Below, one piece after another: positions 17,476-64,000 of a stretch of 64,000 nt of DNA (position 1 is the first letter of the stretch; each line of letters opens with the position of its first letter). A program made the translations under genes and the position numbers. A model generated the notes under the pieces. That model had not been told where the DNA came from. It made no database searches and worked only from the letters and a program-made list of their open reading frames with translations. Source of the stretch: Pascua guehoae. Taxonomy: Eukaryota > Basidiomycota > Tremellomycetes > Trichosporonales > Trichosporonaceae. The stretch is taken from NCBI GenBank assembly GCA_001600415.1, contig BCJX01000004.1, positions 1,135,689 through 1,199,688 on the forward strand. Direction: 5' to 3'.

Positions 17476-18325
17476 CGAGAGGCGCGAGAAGAGGCGCGAG
17501 GCGAGAGCATGCATTGGTGTTGTGTATGGTGGGGCAAGAGTGGTGTCGGTGTCAAAGTGGGACTGGCATTGGGGTGCTGACCTTTGCGGGGATCGACCTT
17601 TGCGGGGGTACTGGGCGCCACAGGGCGGCGGCATGCAGCGTGCCGCCCGTAGCCCGTGCCGAGGATGACCACTGACATGACTGCCCCTCGGCGCTACATG
17701 TCGTCCCGTACACTCATTCCGGCACGCCCGCGCAGTCTGCGGCCCACAACATACCGCTCTCGGTACCGCCACAATCGCCAACCACCACGGTCCCGAGCCC
17801 CAGACAACGTGGGCGTGGATGCCGAGATGACTGACACCAACGCCCCAACATGTCGCGGGAAGCAAAGCAACGACGCCGTCGAGAGCGTCCCAGTGTATCT
17901 GTGACCCCGACTCGGAAATGGGGGCTTGACATACTGCAGTTTTTTTCGATCGAGAGTCACACAACTGACATCACTCACCGCGCAACAGCAAACGAGGCAT
18001 GTGGCATACACCTGACATGACTGAAGCGAGACGACGACGAGGCGAGGAGGTATAAAGACGCGACTGGAACGGTCGACTGGGACTGGGACTCTGCCGACCA
18101 CCTACCGGGGTGCCACATCCACATCCACCACTTGCATACCACCCATTGTCCTGACCCCTAGTCACGACCCCCCACCCGCACCGTCACGACCACTACCCGA
18201 CCCAAACTCAGCCCAAACCCCCGGCCACCACCACACCCACCACTACACGCACCCCTACTCGACCCACTCTCCGCGTTCTCCCCCGCGCTCAACCGACCCC
18301 ACCCAACCCAACCCAACCCCCCACC
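17476..18325. other. Intergenic, 3' of SNF5-like gene and promoter of array member A
   Basis: No gene recognised. A clear TATA box (tataaag, 18051-18057) lies 275 bp upstream of the member A ATG. A C/A-rich leader with repeated acccaacccaaccc precedes the ATG. Confidence 0.5.
18051..18057 (+). promoter_or_regulatory. TATA box, array member A
   Basis: tataaag in a GC-rich setting, 275 bp before the member A ATG; the distance implies a 5' leader of roughly 240 nt. Confidence 0.5.
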
Positions 18326-18939
18326 ATGCCCCGCACCCAGCCCACCCCCGACCCCCGCCGCCCCGCACCAGGCACGCTCGTGGACCGCACGCGCGTAAAG
18401 GTCAAGCGCGTGTGTCGCCAACCGCGGATCCGGGGCAGGCACGTCGGTGAGTCTGTCACAGGAGTATCCTGGGGGCGGTGGCTGTGGCCTTGGGGCTGGG
18501 GGGTGGTGGTTTCTCCTCGATATTCTCGAGTCTCGGGCTGCCTCGCCCTCCAATATCTCGAGCTGCGTCCAGCTGCGTCCAATCGAGGCCGTCTCCAACT
18601 GCCTCATGCCCCGTCCAATATTTCCCACATCTCCAGCTGCGCCCAGCTGCCTCGAGCTGCCTCGAAATGCGTCCAACCTCAACCGCTCCCAACTAGGTCC
18701 AGCTGCTCAACTGCTTCCAATCCCCCTGCTTTCCCCCCCCCCCCCCCCCCCCCCCCCCCCCTGCCCAGCTGCCAAACACCAAACTGCTACAATCTACTTT
18801 TCTACTTGCCCATGCCTCCTCGTTGCTGACGGCAGTATCCGTGTGCGTGCCCGCGTACGACTCGGGGTGGCGATGCGCGTGGTGTGGTGTGGACATGGAC
18901 GATCTGAATTGCGTGTTTGTAGAGTCGGATGGGGAGTAG
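18326..18939 (+). CDS. Small CxxC protein, array member A
   Basis: Exon 1 is 18326-18446 and exon 2 is 18836-18939, joined by a phase-1 intron (gtgagt donor; gctgac then ggcag acceptor), for 74 residues. Exon 2 begins VSVCVPAYDSGWRCAWCG, followed by VDMDDLNC and a mildly acidic end. The four-cysteine pattern is C-x13-C-x9-C-x2-C, related to the five genes downstream. The first exon is longer and basic (KVKRVCRQPRIRGRH), unlike the others, and the first spacer is longer, so this is the most divergent and least certain member. The 389-nt intron contains a C homopolymer (about 18730-18762) and repeats of ctcgagctgcgtcc. Function unknown; a small zinc-binding fold is inferred from the cysteines only. 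Confidence 0.6.
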
Positions 18940-20065
18940 GTGGGGAGGTGTGTGTTTTTGGTGGATGCGTTGGGGGATGGCGTTGGGTATTGGTGTGGGA
19001 TGGGATAAGGTGGGATGCACATAGGAAGGCAAGGATGGGATGGGATGGGATGCACGTGGGGAGGGTTAGATGGGATGGCAAGCACATAAGGAGGGCTAGA
19101 TGATGGCAAGCCAAAGGAGATGGATGGAAATGGGCAGTGACGTGACTGGAATGGGATGGATTGAAATGCAATGGCGTTGGTTGCCACAGTGCTGCGGTGG
19201 GGGGGGGGGGGGTGACTTCGCCTCGCCTCTGGCAACACGACCCGCCTGGCGCCCTGGGGTCCTTCTAGCACATGTGCTGTGCTGTACTGTAGCTAGATTC
19301 GCCACAAGTGCCATGGTGGTACTGTACAGTACGTTGCGCGCCACCGCTTCAGTCGAAAGGTTATCCCACAAATGCCACGGCGCTCGATTCTCCATCCCAC
19401 TCCATCCGCTCAACAACAAAGAGGACAAGAGCGGCCCGGCCGCGCTGTGCGTCCCCATCCAAAGCTCGGACGTTTGCCCGCCCCACCATGCCTCACCATG
19501 CCCGTCATGCCCGTCCGTGCCCCCAGCCCACGTTCCAGGACCAAGTCACCCCTCCCTCGCAGCCGTCACGATTCGCCACCACACACTGTCCCACACCGCA
19601 CCGCACCACCACATTTGCTTGGGCCACTCCGTGTGCGCGTTCACTGGCTCCGATCCACTCCGACTCGCCCATTCCCCCCCGTCCGCACGCGTCCTCGTGC
19701 GTCGACGCGTCGGCGTCACATGACTGTGTGCGAGTGAATACTGTACCAACAACTTAAGAAGCCACCGTGTGTGTTACAGTGTTGTGTTTGCCCTCCCCGT
19801 ATTGTTCTAGTTCTAGCTCTTGGCATGTTGAGGTGCATGATGCCATGGGCAGCACGTTGTCGTCAACATGCGACTCGTAACGTATATGTACATGTCCCAG
19901 ACGACTGGCTTGTCCTCTGCCACTCATCATATCCCACATCCCACACTTGTACGCTTTCGGTGGTGTTTGCAATCCAAACGAACAATCACAGCAACGATAA
20001 TCGCTACTACAACCAACCACGACCACGACCACAACCACACCCACGTCGAGATCGAAAGTGACGCA
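18940..20065. other. Intergenic between array members A and B
   Basis: No coding signal or RNA gene found. It contains GGGATGG-type repeats (18990-19170) and a G run at 19198-19212. I saw no additional array member in any frame here. Confidence 0.5.
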
Positions 20066-20194
20066 ATGCCGCCCTTCCCACCGACCACCTCCCGCTACTG
20101 CCCAGACAACCAAGGATGTGAGAATCACAGCTGCCCGGTGGACAGGTGGACAGGCAAGCTGGCAAGCTTGCCAGCGGCATGGCAGCAACCCGCG

Positions 20195-20236
<42 letters not shown>

Positions 20237-20855
20237 AGAGAAGGGGAGAGGAGGAGCTGGGGAGAGGGGGAGCTGGGGGGGGGGGGGGGGGGGTCAGGGG
20301 GGGCAGGCTTTGCCTCGGCACCCAGCGCCTTGTTTCCCAGCCACACGAGCTTGCCAGCTCGACCAGTCCCAACCTCCCCAACGACGTTGGGGCGTTGCGT
20401 CGTTCCGAGTGCCTGATGGCCAGATGGCCAGATAGCCTCATGTACTCGTGTACTCGTGTACTCGTGTACTCGTGCCCAGTGCCCGGTGACTAGCTCGTGA
20501 CCACTGACGCGCAGATCCGTGTATCCCGATCTACACGCTGTGGTGGCACTGCGCCGTGTGCGAGGCCGTGCTCGACCCGGACGATATATGCTTTGAGGAC
20601 TCGGAGCCCGAGGACGAGGATGAGGACAAGGAAGAGGAAGAGGACGGGGACGGGGACAGGGACGAGACGGACGTTCCTATGACTCTGGAGAGTTCTGATG
20701 AGGACGGAGACGAGGGCGGGCAAGACGATGGGGGAGACAATGACGAGGAGGAAGAGGAAGACGAGGAGGGGGAGAAAGACGCAGACGCAGTGCCTCGAGA
20801 CGGAGAGCCCCCGGCAACCAACGCGTCCGACCAGCCCGGGTGCACGACTGCGTAG
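20066..20855 (+). CDS. Small CxxC protein with long acidic tail, array member B
   Basis: Exon 1 is 20066-20117 and exon 2 is 20515-20855, phase-1 intron of 397 nt, 130 residues. The N-terminus is MPPFPPTTSRYCPDNQG; exon 2 continues YPCIPIYTLWWHCAVCEAV. The pattern C-x7-C-x9-C-x2-C matches the neighbours, and the split codon (Tyr) lies two residues before the second cysteine. The last roughly 90 residues are almost all Asp/Glu with a few Gly, Arg and Thr, the longest tail of the family. The intron carries G homopolymers at about 20196-20235 and 20275-20292, where the assembly may be inexact. No known family recognised; an acidic microprotein with a putative zinc-binding head is the plain description. 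Confidence 0.72.
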
Positions 20856-21096
20856 AGGGCCCTTGTATTATACCGTATGCGGGCGCGCGCACGCCATTTG
20901 TATGTGAAGCGTCGTCGCATGGTATGCTCGCTACAGGGCGACTGTGTGGCACTTTACACTTTGCCACACTGCCACATCGCCGTCACTACTAATCACCTCC
21001 TGGCCACACCATTCAACCCCAAGGCCCGGCTGCAAGAACAAACCAAAGCGCGTCTGAAGATCTAGATATCTAAAAAGGATTGAACCCAGGGGCACG
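20856..21096. other. Short intergenic stretch
   Basis: 3' region of array member B up to the tRNA-His gene. Nothing else recognised. Confidence 0.5.
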
Positions 21097-21178
21097 TGTC
21101 CATACGCTGAATCGAACAGCGGTCTCAACAGAGGCTGTCAGCCACAATGTTGCGTACTCACCACTATACTATATGAAC
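21097..21178 (-). tRNA. tRNA-His (GTG) with 10-nt intron
   Basis: Reads on the minus strand. The acceptor stem is GTTCATA/TATGGAC with discriminator A. The D arm has GTAT/GTAC stems with the AGTGGT loop typical of fungal tRNA-His. The anticodon stem is CAACA/TGTTG, and the T arm is CGCTG-TTCGATT-CAGCG. The anticodon loop begins TTGTGG, giving anticodon GTG. The loop region is 17 nt instead of 7, so a 10-nt intron follows position 37. All stems pair fully apart from G-T pairs. It lies between array members B and C. Confidence 0.93.
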
Positions 21179-22321
21179 CTCGATGTTTGCTTTTATTTCG
21201 TGGCGATGGTGCCCAGGGCCTCGAGCTACAAGCTATGGGGACGAGGGAGACGTTGGCTGTGTTGGTTTTTTGCACACGGGTGGGGAGCAGCGTCATGAGC
21301 GTGTGCGTGCCCGCGTGAGATAGCACGCCCCAAGCTGGCTCGTCTGGCACCTAACAAGCACAGTGGCTGTAAAAGGTTGCGACTCCCACTATGTTGCACC
21401 AGGCCCATACCGTGGGACTTGTGCCATCTCACAAGGCCGCAGATCCGAGGCTTTGGGTCAAGCATACTTGAGCCCACCCTGGCAGTCCCAACCTTTCTGG
21501 TGGCCACTGTATAGCTAATCTTAATCACAAGTATGAGACCATTCCCTACAGTATCATTACCGGGTGGTGGCTGACGGTACTATAACGTTTCGTGTCTCGT
21601 TTGGTGTGTCAAAGAAGGATGTCGGCGAGCACAGAGGTGGGCGAAGGCAATGATGGGATCAAGGCAGGTGTGCAAGGAGAGGTTTTTGCGAGACAGTTTA
21701 ATTCAAAATGTATTGGCACTCGAGTCTCGTTGGATGCCTAGAACCTCGAGTCATTCCCTTCTTGTCCAAATGGCATCCTTCTCCAAACGGCATCCTTCTC
21801 CAAACGGTATTCTTCTCCAAACAGTATGGCGGGTACGACTGGACTCTGCGGTGCAAAGGGTTTGTAGACGGCAAAATATTAGCCTGAGAGAGCTCTGGAC
21901 CAGGCCACGACAGCCTTGTCGGAGACGCCAGAGCAGTCAGAAGCACCCACCATGTGGGCATTGCAGCACAAGCAACATGCAACAACGCCACGGTGACAAC
22001 GCATGCGCTAGTGGGATATTGACAACTACAACCCTTGATAAAGGGGCCACCGTGTCGACGCCCACGATGGACACGCCTTTGCTCTTTGGATGAGACAATG
22101 CACGGTCCTCTCGACGAGTAACCCCCCTTTGTGGGCGATATGTCCGACGGGCGCGCATCGTCATTGTCTGCATCTCTGGCCGGATCTGGCCGTCACTCTC
22201 ACTGCATCCCATTATTGTCGATGGAGATAAACACGTTGGCATTGTCACTTTGCCACCTTTACCTTCAGCCCGCAACCCCAACCCATCACCCACCACCCGC
22301 CGCCTCTTCCCGGCTCCAATC
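21179..22321. other. Intergenic between tRNA-His and array member C
   Basis: No gene recognised. A direct tandem repeat of about 20 nt (ccttctccaaacggcat with drift, four copies) lies at about 21776-21826. No clear TATA box before member C. Confidence 0.5.
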
Positions 22322-22703
22322 ATGGGATTCTACTGCTACCAGTTCTGCCCACAAGCCGCCGACCACGGTACGCCCCAACGTGTGACACAGCCACCCCCAC
22401 TGACACTTAGCCTTCTGCGAGCCGGACAAGTATGGCGACCGGTGCGTCGCGTGCGACGCGGTGATTTGCTGGGAGGAAGGGAGCGATCCCGAGGACGACG
22501 ACTGGGTCGAGCCCAACGAGCACGCACAGGTGCAGGTGCAGGCGACGACGCAGGCGACAACGCAGACTGGGCCGCGGGTGGTGGACGGTAGCGAGGGCGG
22601 GGCGAGCGGGGCCAGTGGGGCCAGTGGGAAGAGCACACAGGGCGGGGGCAAGGTTGGGACGAGTGGCAAGGGCGGCGCCAACGCGGACGCCAAGAGCTCA
22701 TAG
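22322..22703 (+). CDS. Small CxxC protein, array member C
   Basis: Exon 1 is 22322-22367 and exon 2 is 22411-22703, a 43-nt phase-1 intron, 112 residues. The head is MGFYCYQFCPQAADH then AFCEPDKYGDRCVACDAVI, giving C-x8-C-x8-C-x2-C plus an extra N-terminal Cys and a Cys after the CxxC pair. An acidic linker (WEEGSDPEDDDWVEPNEH) is followed by a Gln/Thr/Gly/Ser-rich low-complexity end rather than a pure acidic tail. The split codon (Ala) is two residues before the second family cysteine, as in the other members. Function unknown. Confidence 0.72.
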
Positions 22704-23393
22704 GGCGGAAAGGAGGATAGGAGCAAAGGGAGGTATCTGTAAAGGACGATGCACGAGCCCTGGGGACATGTAGGGGACCACATTCACTATTGTCACTACG
22801 GTATGGTTTGGGGATGAGATTCAAGGGGGGCGAGTCACAAGACGCACGGTGCTCGAACCGTACAGTGGTCGCAATCGTGACAGTAGCATTAAACTGACAC
22901 ATGACACAGAAAGGAATACAGCATAGGCAACAGCTGACACCTGACCGCCCCAACCCCAGGATTCCCTGAGCGACACGAACCCCACACGCTAGCACAAGCA
23001 GCTTGAAGGATGCAGCTCGTGTCCCCACCGCCGACCCCCATCGTCGCCGACGCACCGTCCCAGCCTTTGCGGTGGGGCCAGCACGGCCCACTCGCCGTCG
23101 CTGGGCTACCGTCTGTCACTGGCAGAGGGGAACCTGTAGCTCAAAGCCCAATGTCACCAGGTACTTATGCAGGGCGGACTCATCCTTATTCTCACCTCGA
23201 GACCACCACACCTCACACCCCACACCCACTACCCTTACTCACACCCACATCCACCGCTCGCACCACCCACCCTTTGGGTGCCTTTGAATATTCCCCCGAG
23301 CTCCCAGCCCACGTCCCTCGAACGGCACCACGGCACGCAACCCAGCACGCAGCACCCAACCATCCTCCAGTTTCCCTCCGAGTTCACACAAAG
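22704..23393. other. Intergenic between array members C and D
   Basis: Nothing recognised apart from a C/A-rich leader before member D. No clear TATA box. Confidence 0.45.
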
Positions 23394-23600
23394 ATGCCAG
23401 AAACGCGCGAGCTCATTGTGCGCATCTGGACCGACATCTGCCTCCTCTCCCCCAACGATGGTGTGTCCCTCAGCCCCTGTTCTTCCCACCGTGCTCACGC
23501 CCAAGAGGAGTGCATCCCCGTGACGACTGCGGACGGGTACGTGTGCCAGCGGTGCGGCGAGGAGCTCGACTGGGACGAGGTGTACGACGACCAAGTCTAG
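23394..23600 (+). CDS. Small CxxC protein, array member D
   Basis: Exon 1 is 23394-23460 and exon 2 is 23506-23600, with a 45-nt phase-1 intron (gtgtgt donor, gcccaag acceptor), 53 residues. MPETRELIVRIWTDICLLSP precedes the junction, and exon 2 reads EECIPVTTADGYVCQRCGEE, then an acidic LDWDEVYDD end. The pattern is C-x8-C-x10-C-x2-C with the split Glu codon two residues before the second cysteine. The intron is a multiple of three without a stop, so unspliced RNA would give a 68-residue form with 15 extra residues. The donor and acceptor are weaker than in the other members, so splicing is inferred mainly from the family pattern. Confidence 0.68.
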   Translation: MPETRELIVRIWTDICLLSPNDGVSLSPCSSHRAHAQEECIPVTTADGYVCQRCGEELDWDEVYDDQV

Positions 23601-25020
23601 TCCAAGTCATAGTCTCAGAGTATCATAGTCTCAGAGGTCATGGGCGGGGGATTATGCACAACCATATTTTTTTTCCCCAGAAGGGGGGGTGTAATTCATC
23701 CCAGTCCCAGCCGCAAGCAAGGACCGAGGCTGCGGTAAACCCAGCTCTGGTGCACATGACTATGGTGCACACCCGAAACGTGCCGATCCCGCCAGAACGT
23801 CGACGCCCCGCATGGGCCCCGTTGTCGTGGGGAGGACGTCCAAGAGGTCATATGATGCATGTGATGCATCCCATGCAGCTAGGGGACATGTGGCGGCCGT
23901 GTGGGTGTGGGGTCGCTTTCTGGGTGCACAACAACACGAACAATGTTGACTAACATTCACTTTGTGTATCTGTACACCACCCTACCTTTGCCTCCCAGGT
24001 GCACCCTCCCCCCTCGCACCTGCACCTGCGTCTCGGGTCCCCCTTTCCCGGCTGCTTACCAACCAGTATTTGAGCATGCCTGTGCGCAGTCGGGGGGTGC
24101 TGTGTGTTTCTGGCATGGTGCGAAAATTCTTGGGTAAACATGAGGCACGGTGGGTTGTTGCAGTCTAAGTGTTGTACCAGCTGCCTGCAGTCACTCGTCG
24201 ACCATGTGACCTGGCATTGGGGAACGGCGCCGTGAGGCGAACTGAGGCCAAGAAGAGCCCTCGCTCCAACCCAGTGCCGAACTGCGCATTCCACACTCCG
24301 AGCCAGATGGACGTCCACCAACCGTACGGGCCGCATGTGTGTCTGTGTGTGTCGAAGTTAGGAGCATCAGCGTGTAGACATCCACGCAGAGGGATCTGAT
24401 GGGGAAGAATCATAACCGAATGGAGGAGAACCAAAAAACAAGCACCGAGCTTGACACCACCGTGTCCGTCGCACGGCGCACAAAGTCTTTTGTCTCGAGC
24501 TCTCGACACACAGCGAGCATTGCCGGTGGGGAGAAACGCCACACACACACACCACTCATTCGCAAAACAGCACGCGCACATTCGCAAAACAAGACACAAA
24601 AGATCCTCGCTGCTTGTTTGTCAGTATTCGTAACAGAGAAGCTGCTCTGTCGAGATTATTTGGCAGAGTTGGGAGAACAAAGCCGCTTCTCAACGCCTCC
24701 GGGGCCGGCGAGAACACTTGGGGCGATCAATGATCCCCACGACGAGCTCGGTCTCGGAGGGCCGAGTGGCGAGCATGCCATGGACGATGGGTATAAAATG
24801 CAGTAGAGGCTGGTGCTCATGACCGTTTTCGTAAATCTCCACGGCTACCATACTACTTTGAGCGCAGCTAGCACGCCTCACCAACTGCACGCCACGCCAC
24901 ATCAGCACCACGCAACGGCACAACACGCCACGCCAACACCACACCTCACCTCGCCGCCACACCACACCGAGCCCACGCATCACGCACCAACACGCGCCAC
25001 GCACCACGCACCCATCCACC
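23601..25020. other. Intergenic between array members D and E
   Basis: No convincing gene. A TATA box (tataaaa, 24792-24798) precedes member E. A long C/A/CCACGCCACG-rich leader (about 24880-25020) holds repeated caccacgcacc units. Confidence 0.5.
24792..24798 (+). promoter_or_regulatory. TATA box, array member E
   Basis: tataaaa in gatgggtataaaatgcag, 229 bp upstream of the member E ATG; a strong match in GC-rich DNA. Confidence 0.6.
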
Positions 25021-25275
25021 ATGAACCCCGAAATGCCCGCGTGCCCCGAGGGAAATGGCTACCGTGAGCGTACGCGTGGCGCAGTGTTGGGTACACACTG
25101 CCCCAGAGTCGTGAAACCCAAACTCAAGCATGCATGGACCCGAGACTGTGAGCCTGCTGACTTCGTAGAGCGCTGCAACGGGCGCCAGTCCCGGAACGGA
25201 GAGTGGACGTGCACCGTGTGCGGGCAGGACCTCACCGAGTACTGGGACGACTCTGACTCGGAGGACGAAGAGTAG
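25021..25275 (+). CDS. Small CxxC protein, array member E
   Basis: Exon 1 is 25021-25063 and exon 2 is 25169-25275, a 105-nt phase-1 intron (gtgagc donor, gctgac branch, cgtag acceptor), 49 residues. The head is MNPEMPACPEGNGY and exon 2 reads QRCNGRQSRNGEWTCTVCGQ, then LTEYWDDSDSEDEE. The spacing is C-x8-C-x11-C-x2-C. The split Gln codon is two residues before the second cysteine. With member F it forms the most similar pair: both have CP at the first cysteine, Gly-x-Trp-x-Cys before CxxCG, and a short acidic tail. A G-rich run follows the stop at 25299-25320. Confidence 0.78.
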   Translation: MNPEMPACPEGNGYRERTRGAVLGTHCPRVVKPKLKHAWTRDCEPADFVERCNGRQSRNGEWTCTVCGQDLTEYWDDSDSEDEE

Positions 25276-26090
25276 TCCAGGGTTGCTTCTGGCCAGCTGG
25301 GGGGGGGGAGGGGGGGGGGGGAGGTGAAGACGGGACGACAGACCAGAGCTGCCAGGTGCAGGGGATGACGAATGGGTGGCGAATCACACGAGGCTGCCAA
25401 AAGGGGCCGGTATGAGTGTTGCAGGGTTTCCGAGACACGGCGTGTATGTACAAACTAGTAGCAAAAGGGTGTTCGAGTAGAGTAGCTGGGCAAACATGCA
25501 CATTCACCTCTCATGCACATGTGCACACATCTGCAAGCTGCAGGCTTAGCATGAGGGCAATAGGCAGAGCGGATCATGGCTGCTGGGCGCGTGCACGGTC
25601 CAGTGGCTGCGGTACGATGGATCTCTGACATGGGTGCACAGGCAGCACGGGCAGCACGGATCATGTGCGCGTGAATGTCAAAGGAGGAGGCACAGGCGCC
25701 ACTTTGGAATGCCTGTCTGGCCGTCTGTCTGTACTGCACGTCGGCCTCTGCACACGGCGTACGCAGCCTCCATCCTCGCATACACACGCATACACACACA
25801 CACACAGTGTACTCTCTCTCTCTCGACAGTCACACCCATTGATCCCGACACCGTGCACATGCTCGGATCCTCGGATGCCCCGGAGCTCGCCGGCGGTGAC
25901 AGCGACAGTACCCAAAGAGCATATAAGGGGAGCCTCTCTCCTCGGCCACTCGTTTCACTTACTCATCAACCCCTCCTCGCCCTCTCTCTCTCGATACCTC
26001 ACACTCTCTACCTCGCAAGCGCCAAGCCACACTCCACACCCTTGACACTACCCCTCCCCCTCGACCTACCTACCACTCTTATCAGCAATC
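25276..26090. other. Intergenic between array members E and F
   Basis: Contains an AC run (about 25785-25806) followed by a TC run (about 25813-25823), and a TATA box at 25922-25928. No gene seen. Confidence 0.5.
25922..25928 (+). promoter_or_regulatory. TATA box, array member F
   Basis: tataagg (in gagcatataagggg), 169 bp upstream of the member F ATG. Confidence 0.55.
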
Positions 26091-26305
26091 ATGGACGAGC
26101 GCTGCCCCGCAGGCGACGGCGACCGTACGTGCTTGCACACGGTGCTCTGACGCCTTTTTTTTTTTTCTCCACGCCGTTTCAACTGACACGTATCCCAGAG
26201 TACTGCTATGCGCGCTACTACATTGGCCAGGGCTGGCAGTGCACCATGTGCGGCCGTGACATGAGCGGCTCGGACGACGAGGACTCGTCGGACGACGAGG
26301 AGTAA
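26091..26305 (+). CDS. Small CxxC protein, array member F
   Basis: Exon 1 is 26091-26124 and exon 2 is 26199-26305, a 74-nt phase-1 intron (gtacgt donor, aactgac branch, cccag acceptor), 46 residues, the shortest member. The head is MDERCPAGDGD; exon 2 reads QYCYARYYIGQGWQCTMCGR, then DMSGSDDEDSSDDEE. The spacing is C-x8-C-x11-C-x2-C, identical to member E, and the split Gln codon is again two residues before the second cysteine. The strong splice signals and upstream TATA box make this and member E the best-supported members. Confidence 0.78.
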
Positions 26306-33917: not shown

Positions 33918-33996
33918 GGTCTGATCGTATAACGGTTAGTACACAAGATTCTGACGCCACGTTCTTGTAATCTGGGTTCGATTCCCAGTCGGACCT
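33918..33996 (+). tRNA. tRNA-Gln (CTG) with 7-nt intron
   Basis: The acceptor stem is GGTCTGA/TCGGACC with one G-T pair. The D arm is GTAT/GTAC, the anticodon stem CAAGA/TCTTG, and the T arm CTGGG-TTCGATT-CCCAG. The anticodon loop starts TTCTGA, giving anticodon CTG. The loop region is 14 nt, so 7 nt are intron. A T-rich stretch (tttgctttttag) follows as terminator. A shifted stem (ACAAG/CTTGT) would read TCT (Arg), but the 5-bp stem with correct spacing favours CTG. Confidence 0.85.
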
Positions 33997-35355: not shown

Positions 35356-38300
35356 CTACTTCTTGAAGGTGCCCTCGGTGGGGGTCATGGTGCCTGGCCC
35401 CGGGGTGGCCGCTCGGCTGGGTGCGCGGCTGCCGGACGCGCCGAGGCCCGACTCGTTGACGAGGCTGGTAAACACGCTCTCGGGGCGGGTGAGGAGCGTC
35501 TCGGGCGAGTCGTACTCTGCGACCTGGCCGTTGTCCATGACGAGGACCATGTCCGAGTCGAGAATGGTGTTGATGCGGTGCGCAATCGTGAGCGTCGTCA
35601 CGCCCTTGAAGTCGGGCCCGCGGAGAATAGCCTGGACGGCCTCGTCGGTCTCGAGGTCAATGCTCGACGTCGCCTCGTCGAGGACGAGGATCTTTGTGCG
35701 GCGCAGGAGCGCGCGGGCAAAGCAGACGAGCTGGCGCTGGCCAGAGCTGAGGTCTGGGGATGTTAGCAACATTATGTCTTACACTGTTGGGGCAAAACTC
35801 ACTGCTGCCACCCTCGGAAATCTCGGCATCGAGCGTGCCGCCCATGTTCTTCATGACGTGCTCCTTGAGATGCGCCTGCTCGAGCGCAGTCCAGATCGCG
35901 GCGTCCGATGCCTTGTCGGTGGGGTCAACATTGCTGCGCAGCGAGCCCTCGAACAACTGGGGGTCCTGGGGGATAATGCTGATGACGTTGCGGAGGTCGC
36001 GCAGACCAATCGTCGCAATGTCGACGCCGTCAATCCAGATGCGTCCACCGGCAGCCTCGAGGATGCGGAACAGGGCCAGTGTCAGAGACGACTTGCCCGC
36101 ACCGGTGCGTCCGACAACACCGACACGGTCGCCGCCCTTGATCTTAACGCACACCTTCTTGAGGACCTCGGGCAGTTCGGGGCGGTACCGCATGCAGTAC
36201 TCGCTGATCGACGTCAGTTTTATCCACCATCCTCCGTCACAGTTCATAAGACGTACTCAAACTCGATCGAGCCCGTGGCGGGCCACCCCGCGGGCGGCTT
36301 GGTCTCGGGGATCTCTTCGGCGGCCTCAGACTCAAGCGCGGCGTAACCGAGCACGCGCTCAACAGAGACAATGTTCTGCTCGACCTCGGAGGCGGAGCGC
36401 ACCAGCCAGTTCTGGAGCGTGAGTAAACCGCTACACTAGCGTGGTAGACGACTACTCACAAGAGAACCAGTGACGGAGATGGTGTAAGACATCAGGAGAC
36501 CGACTGCACCCGGCGTCACGATGCCAGTGTACAGCAGGGCGACGACAGAGGCCAATGCGGCGGTGAAGATGAGGCACGAGCCGAGGAACTCGAGGCGCAC
36601 AGCGAGCCAGCGGTTGATCGTCATGGCGGGCTGGTAGCACGACTGGTTGCGGTCGACACGGGCCTCGTTGTTGGCAATGAAGCGTCCCACCTGGTTGTAC
36701 GCCTGGGCTGTCAGCACGGGGTTCACTGACTCGCAACCTTTCTCCACGTACGCGAATGACTGCCAGGCCCGCGAGCGTTTCGCCAAAGAAGGAGAAGATG
36801 GGCGAGCGCGAGACGGCATCGAGACGTTTGAGCTCGCGAGACGTGGCAAGGTAGTACCTGGGCGAAGAGTTAGTAAATGGCCCAGGGCTCGCTGTCATTA
36901 CAACACACCTCATGACCGCGCGGTAAATGTAGCCGAGGGGAATGAAGACAAAGAGAACCATCGGTTGGAGGCTGGCAATGACGGCCACAACACCAAGGAC
37001 GGCCACGACCTATTAGATTAGCATTGGTGTTCACTCCTCTGGTGTCGGCACCTACCGTTCGGGTAAACTGTCCGAGAACCATGCTGAGAATCTCATCGGT
37101 GACGAAAATGTCGCGCGAGAAGAGGTTGAGGATACGGCCGGTGGGGGTAATCTCAAAGAAGCTTAGGGGCGCACGCATGAGAGCGCTGAACGCGAGATCG
37201 TGCATGGTACGCGCTGCGCGGAGACCACTGTAGACCTTGAGGACAAAGATGGCCATGACGTTGAGCAAGCCAGACGAAACGCCGAGGACGCCGTACATGC
37301 CAAGGTAGTAGGGGACATCGACGTTGCGGCCGGCCTTGAGGTTGATGTCACCCCATTTACGCAGGACGTTGTTGGACAGAATGCCAGACGCCTGGCCGGC
37401 GGCCATGCAGAAGACAAAAGTGGCGGCGCCCCAGTACGAGGCGGCGCGAAGGTACGAGCGGTAGACATCACGCTTGACACTGCCCTTTTCAATGTGTTCC
37501 TTTGGCTTTGCAGATTCGCGCAGGTCGCGGAGTGCGTTGCGCTTTGCCTGGCGGAGCGACAGGATCGAGGCGCGACGCGTCGCAGTGCTCTCGCGGCGAG
37601 ATTTCTGGCGCTTTTGTGCCTCCTCTGAGTCGTCGACGGACATGGACTCGTCGTCTGATTCAGACGCCACAATGGTCAGCGTCGGTGTCTCAGAGCCCGA
37701 CGAGTCGCCTTCGCGGGCCGATTGCTTTCCAAGTCCGGTGATGAGCTTGTACAGCTCTGTAGAGGGGTCGGCCATCGCGGCAGGGTACGTGCCCCGCTCG
37801 ACAATGATGCCCTTGCGGAGCATGATGATTTGGTCCGTGTACGGGAGAACGTTGACGGCGTTTGTGCACAGGATACGCGCCTTGCTCTTGAGAAGACCGT
37901 GCGGGCCAATGACATTATCAAAGATGTGACGACCAACGTGCGCATCCACAGCAGACAGAGGGTCGTCGAGGAGGTAGATGTCGGCGCGGGCGTAACATGC
38001 GCGAGCGAGACAAATACGAGCCTTTTGACCGCCAGAGAGCGAGACGCCCTTTTCGCCCACCTCGGTCATGTGGCCATCGGGCAGGACGGCAAGGTCGGCG
38101 CGGAGAGCACAGGCGTCAAGGACCTTGTCGTAAAAGACGGGGTCAAAGCGGTGGCCAAAGACAATGTTCTCCTTGACGGTTGCCGACAGGATCCACGAGT
38201 TTTGCGAAAAGTAGGCAATCTCCCCGCGTACCTTGACCTTGCCTTCGGAACGGTTCATCTCGCCGAGAATGGCAGCAAGGAGCGACGACTTGCCATCACC

Positions 38301-40604
38301 GACACGGCCAATCACGGCGAGCAGTTCGCCCTTGGTAACCGAAATGTTGATGTCGTCGAGCGTGGGTTCAACCGAGTCGCGAACCCAGCGGAACTCGCCG
38401 TTCTCAATGGACACGACCACGTCGCCGGCCTTGGGCTCGCCCTCGGGGTCTTCGGACGGAAGGATGCACTCGCGGGCCGTGGGGTCGAGCTCGTCGGCGG
38501 CAAGGAACTTTTCCAGACGGTCGACCGAGACGAGGGCCTCGATGATGCTGTTGATAATGTTGGAGAAGACACTCATGGGGAAGGCCAAAAGCTGGAACAG
38601 CGAGATGGCTGGGAAGATCATGACGCTGGTGAGCGGGTCCGGCGATGTGAGGACATAGGTGGAAAATGTGGCAAAGGCGACCAGGATGGGAACCGTGGTC
38701 CAGATAAAGTTGCTGCACGACATGACGATACCAATGCGCTTGAGCATCTTGAGCTCCATGTTGTTGCGGGCGTTGTAAACCTTGTCGGCAAACGCCGTCT
38801 CCCAGCCGTAGAGCTTGATCGACTTGATGTTGTTGAGAATCTCGCTCATGAGACGGGTACGAACGTCCTTGGTACGCATGAGCTGGCGCTGGAGACGCTT
38901 TTGAAGGCGGCTGATGAGTGTGTTGATGGGGAGGGAAATGACCATGACGGCAACACCCATAAACGCCTGCCAGCCGATCAAGTTGTAGAGCGACACAAAC
39001 GCAAGGATAATCTGGAATGGTCCCGACCATGCAATGTGGCCGTACTGGGCAATGTCACCGATGCGCACCGAGTCGACACTCTGGAGATTGACAATGTCGC
39101 CCGAAGTACGTCCGGCACGCTCGCCTTGGTTGAGCTTGAGCGACTTGCGGTAGATGAGAGTGACAAGACCGGTCCTGACGCGCATCGTCGTCAGGAAGCA
39201 ACGGTCAAAGTACTGGTGGAGGAGAGCCGTTGCAGTGTTGGCCAGCAAAAACATGAGAATGGCAATGCCAACACCAGCTTCAGCGCCCATGGGGTGGTCG
39301 GTGCTGTAGCTCGACACCCAGAGGAGGAGAAGGCGGAGGAGCTGGGGCTGGGAAAAGTTTAAGATGTCGTAGCACGACTTCATCACACCGGCGATAAAGT
39401 ATGGCCACCCGTACGCCTTGGCCAGGGCCGCCTTGAGGGATGGCTGCTTCTTCTTGCCCTGCCTGACAAGGTCCAGCTGGTGCTGCCACGCAGCATCGAG
39501 CTTGTCTGCCAACGCGTCGGCCGAGTCGTCTGGGGGAAGCCGCCACATGTCCTCTTCGCCAAGGTACTTTTGGGTACCAAGCTGAAGAAGTGGGGTAAGC
39601 CACGAAAAGGTAAGTCTTTGACGTCAGCCACAACAACAACTCTGGCAACACTCGGCCCATGCAGCCTTCTCTATACTCACCGCTCATAGATGTTTGCGGT
39701 AGCGACGGGACTCTCCTTGTCATAGTCGTCCTTGAGGTCGTTGTCGCCCTCAAACGTGTCGCCTGCCTCTTCCTCCTCGTCCTCGAGACGAATCTTGCCG
39801 TTGGACCACGGCAACGAGAAGCGGAACCTGGACCACTGCTTTTCGGGCGAGTAGAGCTCGAGGACAAAGGCAATCAAGCCGACACCCAGGCTCGCAAACC
39901 ACATGGCCTCACGGGCGATGAGGAGCCGGCCGTTCAGCGAGTGCTTGAGCTGGGGGTCAAACTGGCCAGTAGCAATGGCGGTTCGCACAGTCACGGCGCC
40001 AATGAGAAGGTAGAGCGGGAAGAAGAGGAGGACAAGGGAGGACGACGTGCGCGACGTGTGGTGGTTGAGCCACACGAGGTAGGCGAACAGGAACATTGTG
40101 ACGGTGAGGAGGACATATTGGATGAATGCGTAGGGCGACTTTGCGAGCTGCGGGGCGGCGAGGCCGGCGGCAGCGACGGCAAGAATGGACGCGAAGGCGA
40201 GCAGACCCTGTGTGTTAGCAAAGCAGCAACAAAAACACCACAACGGGTGACAATGGACGTCATAGGAAAGGTCTAGCGTCTCTTCTGGCGGAATGGACCT
40301 CGGTGATCAATCGACATACCGTCTTTGCGCGCGCAATGCGCTCGCTCTTGGCCGAGCGCTGAATCCAGTCCACACCGTCGGGACCGGTACGCTTGAGTCG
40401 GTGTTGGATGGAGATGATTTGCAGAGTGGCAACAAGAATGGCCAGCACGAGCGGCACGGGGAGGAGGAGGACCTGCTCGAAACACTGGGTCAGGTCGAGC
40501 TCGCGTCGGCGCGAGATGGGCGACGGTGGCCATTTGCAGACTGGGGCGCCGACACGGCGGCTGCCGTGCGCGACGAGCGCCTGCGCAAACCACTGCGTGG
40601 CCAT
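35356..40604 (-). CDS. ABCC (MRP-type) transporter with TMD0, YCF1/BPT1-like
   Basis: Nine exons on the minus strand: 40604-40320, 40207-39681, 39615-37056, 37009-36909, 36857-36752, 36702-36460, 36411-36257, 36203-35803 and 35753-35356, all in phase, 1591 residues. It has an extra N-terminal TMD0, then TMD1, NBD1, TMD2 and NBD2. NBD1 has Walker [12 protein letters not shown], signature [14 protein letters not shown] and Walker [18 protein letters not shown]2 has Walker [11 protein letters not shown], signature NLSSGQRQL (Asn from a codon split by the last intron) and Walker [13 protein letters not shown]. The degenerate Asp after NBD1 Walker B instead of Glu is normal for ABCC. TMD0 plus length point to a vacuolar exporter of glutathione conjugates, heavy metals or bile-acid-like anions. 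The linker has RRES and RRAS sites for basophilic kinases. Introns cluster in the 3' half. Confidence 0.94.
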
Positions 40605-44017: not shown

Positions 44018-44077
<60 letters not shown>

Positions 44078-51659: not shown

Positions 51660-54134
51660 CTAGCCCTCGAGTCCATCGTCCTCGTCCACATCGCCCTTGC
51701 CACTGAGGTCGAGTTTCCTCTTCCTGCCACCAATCTCTCCAAGCTTGGCATCCCGCCCCACCTTTTCGCGGAGGGCATCGACATCGACCGTGTCCGTGTC
51801 GTTTGCCCACTCGGTAACGAGATGACGACCGAGCAAATGGGTGTGCTTGAGCGCGTCCATGGCGCGCTGGGCCTCGGCGTGTGTTGTAAACTCGAGGAAG
51901 GCGAAACCGCGTGTAGCCTGGGCACCAGTCGACGACAGCGTCGACTTGCGGGGCAGACGGAGCGACTTGAGCGTGCCGTACGCCGCAAAGAGGGCACGCA
52001 CGTCCTTCTTTGTCGCCTCGAATGGCAAGTTTTTGACCAAGAGCTTGGTGCCCTTGGTCTTGGCGGCCATCTCGTCCTTGTCCTTCTTGCTCGCACCGGC
52101 CTTGGCCTCGCGATCGACATCTTCGACGCCGCGCTGCGCAAATTTGACGTCGAGCGCGTGGCCATCGACCTCGAAGCCCTGCAGGCCGCCCAGCGCCTTG
52201 TTCGCCTCCTTCTTCGTCTTGAAGCCGACAAAGCCGTAGCCCATCGACAGGCGCGCACCAGGCTTCTTTGGGTCAGGCTTGGTCTGCACTCGTGCAAACG
52301 AAAAGCCGGGAAGGGCAGAGAGGACAGACACGAGGCGCTCCGTGGTCGTCGCCCACGCCAGGTTCTTGACGAACAGCGTCGAGCCAGCCTCGTCGCTCGG
52401 GTCGGGCTGGTCCCGCACGCTCTCCATCTTTTCGGCCAGAGCAACACGCTCCTCGACCACCTTGCTCGCCGGCGTCGACACAATCTCCTTGTCCTTGAAC
52501 ATTCCCACAGGGCCCTTTTCGAGGTAGAGCACTGCGTTCCCCAGTCGGCGGTACGCCAGAGCGCGGAAGGCGCGGCCCGCGTCCATCGCGTTCACAAACT
52601 CGACAACACCAAGCGTGCCAGACGGAGGCATCAGGACGCGCTTGAGATCGCCGTGGGGTGCGAACAGATCCTGCAGCTGGGTAATGGTAGTGCCGTAGGG
52701 AATGTTCTTGACGAGGATGGTCGTCTGGGAGCGCGGGACCTTGGGCTGGAGCGCTTCGAGAACGATACCCTCGTTCTCAAAGTACGCCTTGGTCTCGGCA
52801 ATGACGTGGGTCTCGGCGAGTGCGAGCTTGACTGCTGGGCTAATGTCGTCGGCGTCAGAGCTACTCAAGAGTTCGGCCTTGGACACGCCCATACGGTCCG
52901 CGACTGAAGCAGCAACGGCATCCGACTGGTGATGTCAGTATGGGTGGCATTTGAGAGAGTGTAGTACCCACGTTCATGTACATTGTGGCCCAGTTGACAC
53001 CACGCGCACTCTCAGTCTTGCGCTTCTGGTCAATCTTGTTCTTGACCTCTCCGCGTGCCTCGGCAGCCTTGCCGAGAACCTTGCCGTCGGTCGTGCCCGC
53101 CCCCGCTGCGGCCGCTGCACCTTCCTGTCCCGGCCGTGCCCGTCCGGGAAGAACGTGAAGCAAACGACCCTGGAACGTCGTCTTGTCAAGCGACTTGCGT
53201 GCCGATAATGCGTCCTCGGGATTGCGGAACAGAATAAATGCGGTGCCGAGCGGCTCGCCAGTCTGTGACGACACGGGCATGTGGAGTTCGACGGTAGGTC
53301 CGAACTGCTCAAAGTGCTCCTTCAGGTCGTCGGCTGTTGCGATAAACGCGAGGTTTCGGACAAAGAGACGTCCAGTCGAGAGGATGAGCGAGTCCTCTGG
53401 GTCGACCTTGGGTGTGGCCTAGATGTTAGAACTGGCCGCTACTCAATGCCTGCACTCACCACTTCGCCCTCGAGCGCGCCCTTTCGCCGTGCGAGCCAGG
53501 CTGCGTCGTCGTCTGCGTCGTCGTCCATACCATCCTGCTCAGGTTCGGGTGTAGCCCTCTCCTTGCCCTTCTTGCTCTGCTTTGCTCCGTCTGCTACCCA
53601 GCCCTTGTCGCCCGGTACGATCGTCTCCTCTGTAGGCGCCGTGGGGTCGACACCCTTCATGACGTCCATAAACTCCTTGAGGTTCTTGGACGAACCGGCC
53701 TTTGGCCTAGCGTCCGTCTCATCCCTCTTCTGTTTCCTGTCGTCGTCGAGCTTGGCCCGCTTGGCAGGCTTGGGTGCGAGTGGCTAAGTGTCAGCATGAA
53801 CCCCAGGCGAACGACCATGGCGACGACCATGGCTAACGAGCGAGTGACCCACCTCATCGCGCACAATGTCGACCTTGACCTTGCCGCCGCCAAATACAAA
53901 GCTGCCATCAAACCACTCCTTGGCCTTGGTCGCCTCTTCGGCAGTGCGGTAGCCCACAAACGCGAAGCGACGCTTCGGCACCACCTTTGTGTCGGTTACA
54001 ACGGCAGACTTGAGGGTGGCGGGCTCCGAGAGCTTTGACTTGAAGCTGTCAGGCGTAATGGAGGGTGGGAGGTTGAGGAAGATGAGACGCGACCTAGAGT
54101 CAGTACTGCGTGCAGGGTGTATCTGTACGCACAT
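51660..54134 (-). CDS. MRD1: MRD1, multi-RRM pre-rRNA processing factor
   Basis: Exons 54134-54133 (just AT of the start codon), 54093-53853, 53783-53460, 53418-52972 and 51660-52925. Five RRMs are visible: SRLIFLNLPPSITPDSFKSK; RLFVRNLAFIATADDLKEHF; TTILVKNIPYGTTITQLQD; STLFVKNLAWATTTERLVSV; and TKLLVKNLPFEATKKDVRAL. This is the full MRD1/RBM19 layout with conserved linkers (GVNWATMYMN before RRM3). MRD1 binds U3 snoRNA-containing pre-ribosomes and is needed for 18S rRNA cleavages in the nucleolus. The spliced start reads MSRLIFLNLP, as in orthologues; the unspliced 39-nt intron is also open and would give MCVQIHPARS at the front. The C-terminus ends in a basic-acidic GGRKRKLDLSGKGDVDEDDG. 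About 759 residues. Confidence 0.93.
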
Positions 54135-63020: not shown

Positions 63021-63137
63021 ATGACGCTCCTCGACGCGCTCCGCTCCTGCCTCCCCTGCATCCCCGCCAAGGCCGACGACGGCGAGTGTATCTTCTGCGA
63101 CGTCTCGGTCGAGAGCGGCTTTGATATCGTGTACGAG
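63021..63137 (+). CDS. HIT-domain protein, first exon only (partial)
   Basis: ATG at 63021 opens a 39-codon exon that ends in phase 0 at a gtgggt donor. MTLLDALRSCLPCIP is followed by GECIFCDVSVESGFDIVYE, the start of a HINT/HINT3-like histidine-triad domain. CIFC is the family's zinc-associated motif; the next exon should begin with an acidic pair and lead to the HxHxH active site. I found no matching second exon in the remaining 860 bases. The intron may therefore be long, or the rest lies beyond the window. Such proteins hydrolyse nucleoside phosphoramidates or other adenylated substrates. A preceding ATG at 63014 is out of frame and stops after three codons. Confidence 0.6.
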
Positions 63138-64000
63138 GTGGGTAGCGCGGTAGCGCAGCGAGGGGTGTGGTGTTGGTTGTTGTTGGTAGTGGCGAGCAGC
63201 GCCGAGCGAGCACGAGCGAGCACGAGCGAGCACGAATGAGCACGAGGGAGCGGGCGCCGACAGCGAACGTTGCCCAGCCGTGATGGCCAACCGCGGACTC
63301 CGCGGACATGACTATCGTCCACCAACGCGCTGTTCACGCCGAGCCCACATGGACCCGAAGACTGCACGGGCCGCATCTCGCCAAGACGACGTCATTCCAC
63401 GCCAGGATCGGATAGGGCCCGCGCCGAGCCCGTGCACTGTCGAGGTGTTTTGTCACGGGCGTGCCGGCACCCCGGTGTGGGTATCGGCCGGCCACGGTGC
63501 GAGGCCACAATGTCGGCCCACTGAGTGACGGGTGGAGGGTGGGATATGAGATACGGGCGCGAGGTGTCGACGTGCGCGCCGAGTAGTCGCTGGTACCGAC
63601 GGCGACTCGCGACCAGTCTCGCACTCGCACCCAAACGCTCTGTTATCTGCACATGCCAGCCCCCGCCACGGGGTCTTGGCGGCGGCCCTCCCGGTGGCGT
63701 CCGTCTTGGCCCGCTTGGGCTGCCCGCTCACTGCCCGTCGGCCGCCGGAGCCCGTTCGCCGCGGCACGTAGTGTGGTCTGGTCTGCCGGGCGTAGGCGGT
63801 CGATATTGGCTGGAGCGTGTGCTGCGGATCCGTGCTGTCGCCCACCAACACGTTGCTTGGCAGGCCGCTTCCTGGGTCGGACGGGGAGTTGGGTTTGGCA
63901 CTGGCACTGGGTGCTTCTCGTCTGGTTCTGGATCTGGTCGCCTTGGATCTGGTTCTGATCTGGTTCTTGTACGCGGCCCGGGCTTGCTTCTCCTCCCGTC
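63138..64000. other. Right edge, presumed intron or 3' sequence
   Basis: Follows the HIT exon. agcgagcacgagcgagcac repeats occupy about 63195-63245. No coding exon could be recognised with the expected HIT motifs. Confidence 0.45.

What the first reader, a model, noticed from the sequence alone, without database searches (positions are those of the whole stretch)
18326..26305. Tandem array of six small CxxC-acidic protein genes
Six + strand genes within 8 kb encode proteins of 46-130 residues with C-x(7-8, 13 in A)-C-x(8-11)-C-x2-C followed, in most, by an Asp/Glu-rich tail. Members E and F are spaced identically (8, 11, 2); B, C and D differ by 1-3 residues, A more. I recognise no known family. 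Tandem birth with strong divergence suggests diversifying use: metal buffering, chaperone-like or regulatory microproteins binding basic partners. The four-Cys head could bind one zinc. The sequence and exon pattern are seen directly; zinc binding and family status are inferred.
Basis: partly seen in the sequence, partly recalled or inferred. Interest (0 to 1): 0.9.

Follow-up and report, generated by a model that had tools for sequence, protein, structure and literature searches.

The report
Fungal four-cysteine acidic microprotein gene family
A fungus carries six small spliced genes in a row, plus one elsewhere in its genome, that look like one undescribed family of tiny proteins with a four-cysteine head (probably holding one zinc ion) and, in most, an acidic tail; what they do is not yet known.

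Summary
Six two-exon genes of 74, 130, 112, 53, 49 and 46 residues lie on the + strand at 18326-26305. A search of the window's own genome (33.6 Mb) found a seventh, unlinked gene G with the same 8/11/2 Cys spacing, intron place and acidic tail. In all seven the intron is phase 1 between Cys1 and Cys2; in six of seven exactly one codon separates the split codon from Cys2. All have a CTNAC branch-like site near the acceptor. Held-out profiles rank A, B, E, F and G first among 7649 ORF pieces; C and D fail, so their membership rests on gene structure and position. No Pfam or NCBIfam family passes its cut-off, and two searches of a 5.8-billion-protein set that holds Tremellomycete proteins found no relative. 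AlphaFold2 of exon 2 gives a beta hairpin ending at the CxxC. Best reading: a lineage-restricted family of intracellular one-zinc microproteins, most with acidic tails, that bind a basic partner. Zinc, expression and partner are inferred, not shown.

The parts
18326..18939 (+). Gene A, 74 aa: exon 1 18326-18446, intron 18447-18835, exon 2 18836-18939; Cys spacing 13/9/2, basic N-terminal part, short acidic tail
   Evidence: held-out profile rank 1 but by a thin margin (E 0.0062, best other piece 0.012)
20066..20855 (+). Gene B, 130 aa: exon 1 20066-20117, intron 20118-20514, exon 2 20515-20855; 7/9/2, tail of 97 residues, net charge -43
   Evidence: only one in-frame splice choice; held-out profile rank 1, E 0.00034
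22322..22703 (+). Gene C, 112 aa: exon 1 22322-22367, intron 22368-22410, exon 2 22411-22703; 8/8/2, CxxCD, two extra Cys in front and one after the head
   Evidence: only one in-frame splice choice; held-out profile fails (rank 212)
23394..23600 (+). Gene D, 53 aa: exon 1 23394-23460, intron 23461-23505 (in frame, stop-free), exon 2 23506-23600; 8/10/2
   Evidence: held-out profile fails (rank 88)
25021..25275 (+). Gene E, 49 aa: exon 1 25021-25063, intron 25064-25168 (in frame, stop-free; donor 25070 equally good), exon 2 25169-25275; 8/11/2
   Evidence: held-out profile rank 1, E 2.4e-5; matches F in the genome search, E 0.044
26091..26305 (+). Gene F, 46 aa: exon 1 26091-26124, intron 26125-26198, exon 2 26199-26305; 8/11/2, tail SDDEDSSDDEE
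   Evidence: held-out profile rank 1, E 0.00057; finds gene G elsewhere, E 0.0037
18051..18056 (+). TATA-box-like site TATAAA, 275 bases before the ATG of A
   Evidence: consensus match only
19883..19888 (+). TATA-like site TATATG, 183 bases before the ATG of B (weak consensus)
24792..24797 (+). TATA-box-like site TATAAA, 229 bases before the ATG of E
25922..25927 (+). TATA-box-like site TATAAG, 169 bases before the ATG of F

Best explanation
Genes A-F and the unlinked gene G are one lineage-restricted family of small intracellular proteins. The head folds round one metal ion, most likely zinc: Cys1 lies in an N-terminal loop, Cys2 at the start and Cys3-x2-Cys4 at the end of a beta hairpin, so the hairpin base closes a four-Cys site. 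The acidic, in places casein-kinase-2-like and disordered tail then docks on a basic partner such as a histone, ribosomal protein or regulator, and the fast-changing head and tail lengths tune which partner or how strongly. Several members have a TATA-like box, as inducible genes often do. Shown here: gene structure, common descent of most members, the extra member, no detectable known relative. Inferred: expression, zinc, the four-Cys site, the acidic-tail partner.
For: Seven two-exon genes with the intron in phase 1 between Cys1 and Cys2 in 7 of 7, one codon before Cys2 in 6 of 7 (two codons in A) and largely forced splice choices. CTNAC starting 10-16 bases before the intron end in 7 of 7 (CTGAC in 5) against 5.5% (2.1%) of all AGs in the window. 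GC3 0.75-0.89 in the six window genes against 0.73 in an ABC-transporter frame of the window. F finds G at E 0.0037 and G finds F at E 0.010 against the whole genome. Held-out profiles put A, B, E, F, G first of 7649 pieces; a profile of A-D alone puts G and F first and second of the rest, and one of E-G puts A first. Tails of net charge -5 to -43. AF2 on exon 2 of F with five window relatives: strands 4-7 and 11-14 at pLDDT about 90, tail about 65. PDB profile search touches the rubredoxin knuckle first, E 0.0022. TATA[AT] in 5 of 7 upstream regions against 87 of 897 random ATGs (post hoc).
Confidence: 0.4

Rival explanations
1. Metal buffers or chaperones: the proteins hold or hand over zinc (or copper), and tandem copies raise the dose, as in fungal metallothionein arrays.
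For: Four conserved Cys; tandem copies; TATA-like boxes in 5 of 7. A gene resembling the metal-resistance ABC transporter YCF1 lies 10-13 kb downstream, which may be coincidence. PMC5812535 (passages) reports tandem metallothionein copies in Candida glabrata.
Against: Only four Cys per head in the shortest members, one hairpin and one CxxC: room for one ion. Copies are highly diverged (pairwise identity to G 26-45%), unlike amplified dose arrays. The head is a predicted fold rather than a Cys-rich coil.
Confidence: 0.2
2. Nuclear transcription co-regulators: the small zinc head docks on DNA or a protein and the acidic, aromatic-dotted tail (for example EYWDDSDSEDEE in E) works as an activation segment.
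For: Acidic tails with W, Y or F in B, C, D, E (8 sequences); zinc head plausible.
Against: The heads carry little positive charge (net 0 to -4 except A at +10), which speaks against DNA binding; F and G tails have no aromatic residue; no nuclear localisation signal was looked for.
Confidence: 0.15
3. A young gene family with no settled function: duplicated small genes drifting, some of them decaying.
For: Strong divergence, C and D hardly recognisable, no orthologues found.
Against: All seven keep an open frame, four Cys, CxxC, intron place and phase despite divergence, which drift would not keep.
Confidence: 0.15
4. The gene models are chance or partly chance: real members E, F, G (and perhaps A, B) with C and D misassigned.
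For: C and D are not recovered by profile and find only themselves in the genome; D's splice choice is not unique.
Against: Motif scan: 5 of 6 in the array, none in 214,719 other bases; C's splice is the only in-frame choice and falls at the same phase and place; an acceptor-plus-motif scan of 356,555 bases found C with A, B, E, F, G and two others only (D was missed because its acceptor ends AAG).
Confidence: 0.1

Closest known systems
Rubredoxin and rubredoxin-like zinc knuckles (PDB 1rb9 and others)
   Same: The W/Y-x-C-x2-C-G turn after a beta strand, followed by an acidic stretch; best profile match, E 0.0022.
   Different: Only 19 of 51 profile positions align; rubredoxin's second C-x2-C is missing and the other Cys pair here is C-x8-C and comes first.
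One-domain zinc-finger micro-proteins, C(P)XCG, of Haloferax volcanii (PMC11241148, PMC10716476, PMC6562870; search listing and start of abstracts only)
   Same: Single-domain proteins of under 70 residues with four Cys, many members per genome.
   Different: Archaeal, with two C(P)XCG motifs; here one CxxC and one C-x8-C, an intron, and an acidic tail. No sequence comparison was run.
Zn_ribbon_RanBP (PF00641)
   Same: W-x-C-x2-C start; weak match of E, E-value 0.013.
   Different: 15.1 bits against a cut-off of 27, only 11 of 30 profile positions, second C-x2-C absent.
Fungal metallothioneins (PMC5812535, passages)
   Same: Small Cys proteins that may occur in tandem.
   Different: Recalled: metallothioneins are rich in Cys clusters and bind several ions; here four Cys and a predicted hairpin fold.

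Membership tests
Rubredoxin | two C-x2-C(-G) knuckles around one iron | tested here: not met
   Profile match covers positions 28-46 only; each head has one CxxC.
Rubredoxin | iron-sulphur-type metal site | not testable with these tools
   Needs purified protein.
RanBP2-type zinc finger (PF00641) | curated score cut-off, C-x2-C ... C-x2-C | tested here: not met
   one member of seven matches, 15.1 bits against 27.
Any Pfam family | score at or above the curated cut-off | tested here: not met
   none of seven members; six families matched below cut-off, one member each. For B and C the tails were cut before scanning.
Any NCBIfam family | E up to 1 | tested here: not met
   0 families for 7 members (a library for prokaryotes).
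Metallothionein | many Cys in C-x-C / C-C clusters, several ions | tested here: not met
   4 to 6 Cys in 46-130 residues, no C-C or C-x-C (Cys positions).
C(P)XCG zinc-finger micro-proteins | two C(P)XCG motifs | tested here: not met
   One CxxC per protein.
This family (A-G) | four Cys, phase-1 intron between Cys1 and Cys2 | tested here: met
   7 of 7.
This family (A-G) | recognised by a profile of the other six | tested here: inconclusive
   5 of 7 rank first; C rank 212, D rank 88.
This family (A-G) | zinc binding | not testable with these tools
   Head spans an intron, so only exon 2 could be folded.

The most novel reading that the evidence does not exclude
A protein family invented in one Tremellomycete lineage: a new minimal one-zinc fold (loop Cys, hairpin, CxxC) joined to an acidic tail and multiplied into a diverging set of inducible microproteins, each tuned to a different basic partner such as a histone or ribosomal protein.
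Probability: 0.15. Interest if true: 0.65.

Novelty: new variant of a known kind. Interest (0 to 1): 0.42.

Why it matters
Genes this short and spliced are easily missed by annotation; no relative of this family turned up in the protein collection searched. If the zinc head and acidic tail are real, it gives a compact, testable case of how a minimal metal-bound fold arises, multiplies in tandem and diverges while its gene structure stays fixed.

Tried and rejected
Other members in the genome. (a) Protein searches with exon 2 of each member: F found G, G found F, E found F; A, B, C, D only themselves. The first look needs shared words, so divergent members can be missed. (b) Patterns: TGGNNNTGYNNNNNNTGYGG, 359 places, only part listed, 30 cut out and read; exon-1 pattern, 71 places, 69 fetched; CxxCGx[DE][LM], 49 places, 4 in the window, 41 of the other 45 fetched, the rest left out as carrying an in-frame stop (3) or the same letters as another place (1); GW-x-CxxCG, 48 places, all read: A, F, G, 7 already held, 38 fetched. 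Counts were near those of the reversed control pattern for three of the four (71 against 40). G was the only convincing member outside the window.

Near misses. L180 (C15:650 kb): CYVPLIFMGKDEETKGWECVRCGRLRE after a fitting acceptor, but C-x17-C, no acidic tail and no convincing exon 1: not counted. L072: CVVCGTEMSDEEDL with a stop three codons before CxxC: not counted. L086: probably an FCP1-type motif (recalled). Window 63057: looks like a HIT-type CIFC (recalled), not a member. No second member within about 8 kb either side of G.

Homologues: two searches with alignments (1720 and 142 candidates) gave none at E up to 10. The control shows that the collection holds Tremella, Naganishia and other basidiomycete proteins; very short unannotated genes could still be absent. 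Candidate length limits may have excluded long-tailed relatives.

Structure: Foldseek and its second look gave nothing; the second prediction job was not used. Shared promoter words: only CACACC-type words and one 32-base A-D stretch, not followed.

Papers: searches gave no paper on such a family in the rows listed (0 held all terms in 36 and 76; one listed in 37; 10 of 74, 10 of 105 and 10 of 122 listed in 51, 52, 53). Searches were for comparators.
Full report
What was checked. The window lies in a held genome of 33.6 Mb in 28 contigs, at contig C4 1135689-1199688.

The six genes are real open, spliceable reading frames at the stated coordinates. Each has one intron between Cys1 and Cys2. 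Listing every in-frame GT-AG choice near each gene shows that the models are mostly forced: one choice for B and C, two for A, F and G, three for D, fifteen for E. Against this, E has a second donor of equal score, and for D a pair that drops Cys1 scores one point higher. In the chosen models the phase is 1 in all seven genes including G, with exactly one codon between the split codon and Cys2 in six of seven (two in A). A CTNAC word starts 10-16 bases before the intron end in seven of seven; in the window as a whole 5.5% of AGs have one within 25 bases. The third codon position is G or C in 75-89% of codons, against 73% in the ABC-transporter frame.

Chance. A scan for the exon-2 motif with an acidic tail and a stop found A, B, D, E and F, nothing else in the 64 kb, and nothing in 214,719 bases of other loci, most of which were fetched because they match similar Cys patterns; Markov sequences gave at most one hit in 300 runs. 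A second scan, for a branch word, acceptor, phase and Cys pattern, over 356,555 bases (overlaps included) found A, B, C, E, F, G and two others, L180 and L086. D was missed there because its acceptor ends in AAG.

A seventh member. Exon 2 of F matched a place on contig C1 (about 2737.3 kb, minus strand) with 45% identity and E 0.0037. Read by eye and checked, it is a two-exon gene of 49 residues, MAEGGKEYPICPNGDGKGFCNPRWYLAYGWLCSECGGKVMDESDDESDN, with spacing 8/11/2, the same intron place, and a TATA-like word 99 bases before the ATG. G finds F in return. No other convincing member appeared in the pattern searches, and none near G. These searches see close members only.

How strong is the family? 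Leaving each member out in turn and searching 7649 ORF pieces with a profile of the other six, A, B, E, F and G come first, with E 0.0062, 0.00034, 2.4e-5, 0.00057 and 2.4e-7; the best other piece lies between 0.012 and 0.073. A's margin is therefore thin. C ranks 212 and D 88. A profile of A-D puts G and F first and second among the rest, E fourth; one of E-G puts A first but not B, C or D in the rows shown; one of B-D puts A and G first. So E, F, G, B and probably A are tied by sequence, while C and D are tied by gene structure, Cys and position.

Known relatives. Pfam matches all lie below the cut-offs, NCBIfam gives none, and two searches of the large protein set gave none. The PDB profile search touches rubredoxins first (E 0.0022), then isolated CxxC turns of other zinc proteins and the adenylate-kinase lid; with F alone the first hits were Egr1-type fingers at E about 0.04. 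These cover one CxxC turn and do not make the proteins rubredoxins.

Mechanism. I favour intracellular one-zinc microproteins whose acidic tail binds a basic partner. Tails are acidic in all seven (net -5 to -43) though C's is mostly Gly/Ser/Thr-rich, and A's long N-terminal part is basic. TATA-like words stand before five of seven ATGs against 87 of 897 random ATGs; this test was chosen after seeing the sequence. Metal buffering, co-regulation of transcription, and drift of a young family are the rivals. Nothing here measures expression, metal or partner.

Verdict. Small one-zinc proteins are a known kind; the C-x8-C / CxxC arrangement with an intron between and an acidic tail is a variant I could not place.

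Noticed in passing
window 21097-21178, - strand: tRNA gene between B and C (Rfam 52.8 bits; ARAGORN gives an incomplete anticodon). By my reading an intron-bearing tRNA-His (GTG).
   Followed up: partly
window 33918-33996, + strand: A second tRNA gene (Rfam 51.8 bits), not seen by ARAGORN; by my reading tRNA-Gln (CTG) with an intron.
   Followed up: partly
window 18733-18761, 20196-20235, 20275-20293, 44019-44076: Long C or G runs (29 C, 40 G, 19 G, 58 G). The first three lie inside the long introns of A and B, which are 389 and 397 bases against 43-105 in the others.
   Followed up: no
window 36870-39623, - strand: Gene resembling the metal-resistance ABC transporter YCF1, 10-13 kb downstream of the array.
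   Followed up: partly
window 51663-52934, - strand: Protein with three RNA recognition motifs (PF00076).
   Followed up: no
window 63021-63140, + strand: Frame with CLPCIPAKADDGECIFCDVSV, probably the start of a HIT-type protein (recalled), caught by the motif scan but not a member.
   Followed up: no
L072:117-260: CVVCGTEMSDEEDL, very like the family's CxxCG and tail, but with a stop three codons before the CxxC; a chance match or a remnant.
   Followed up: partly
L180:94-177 (also L192): CYVPLIFMGKDEETKGWECVRCGRLRE after an acceptor in the family's phase, but no convincing first exon.
   Followed up: partly
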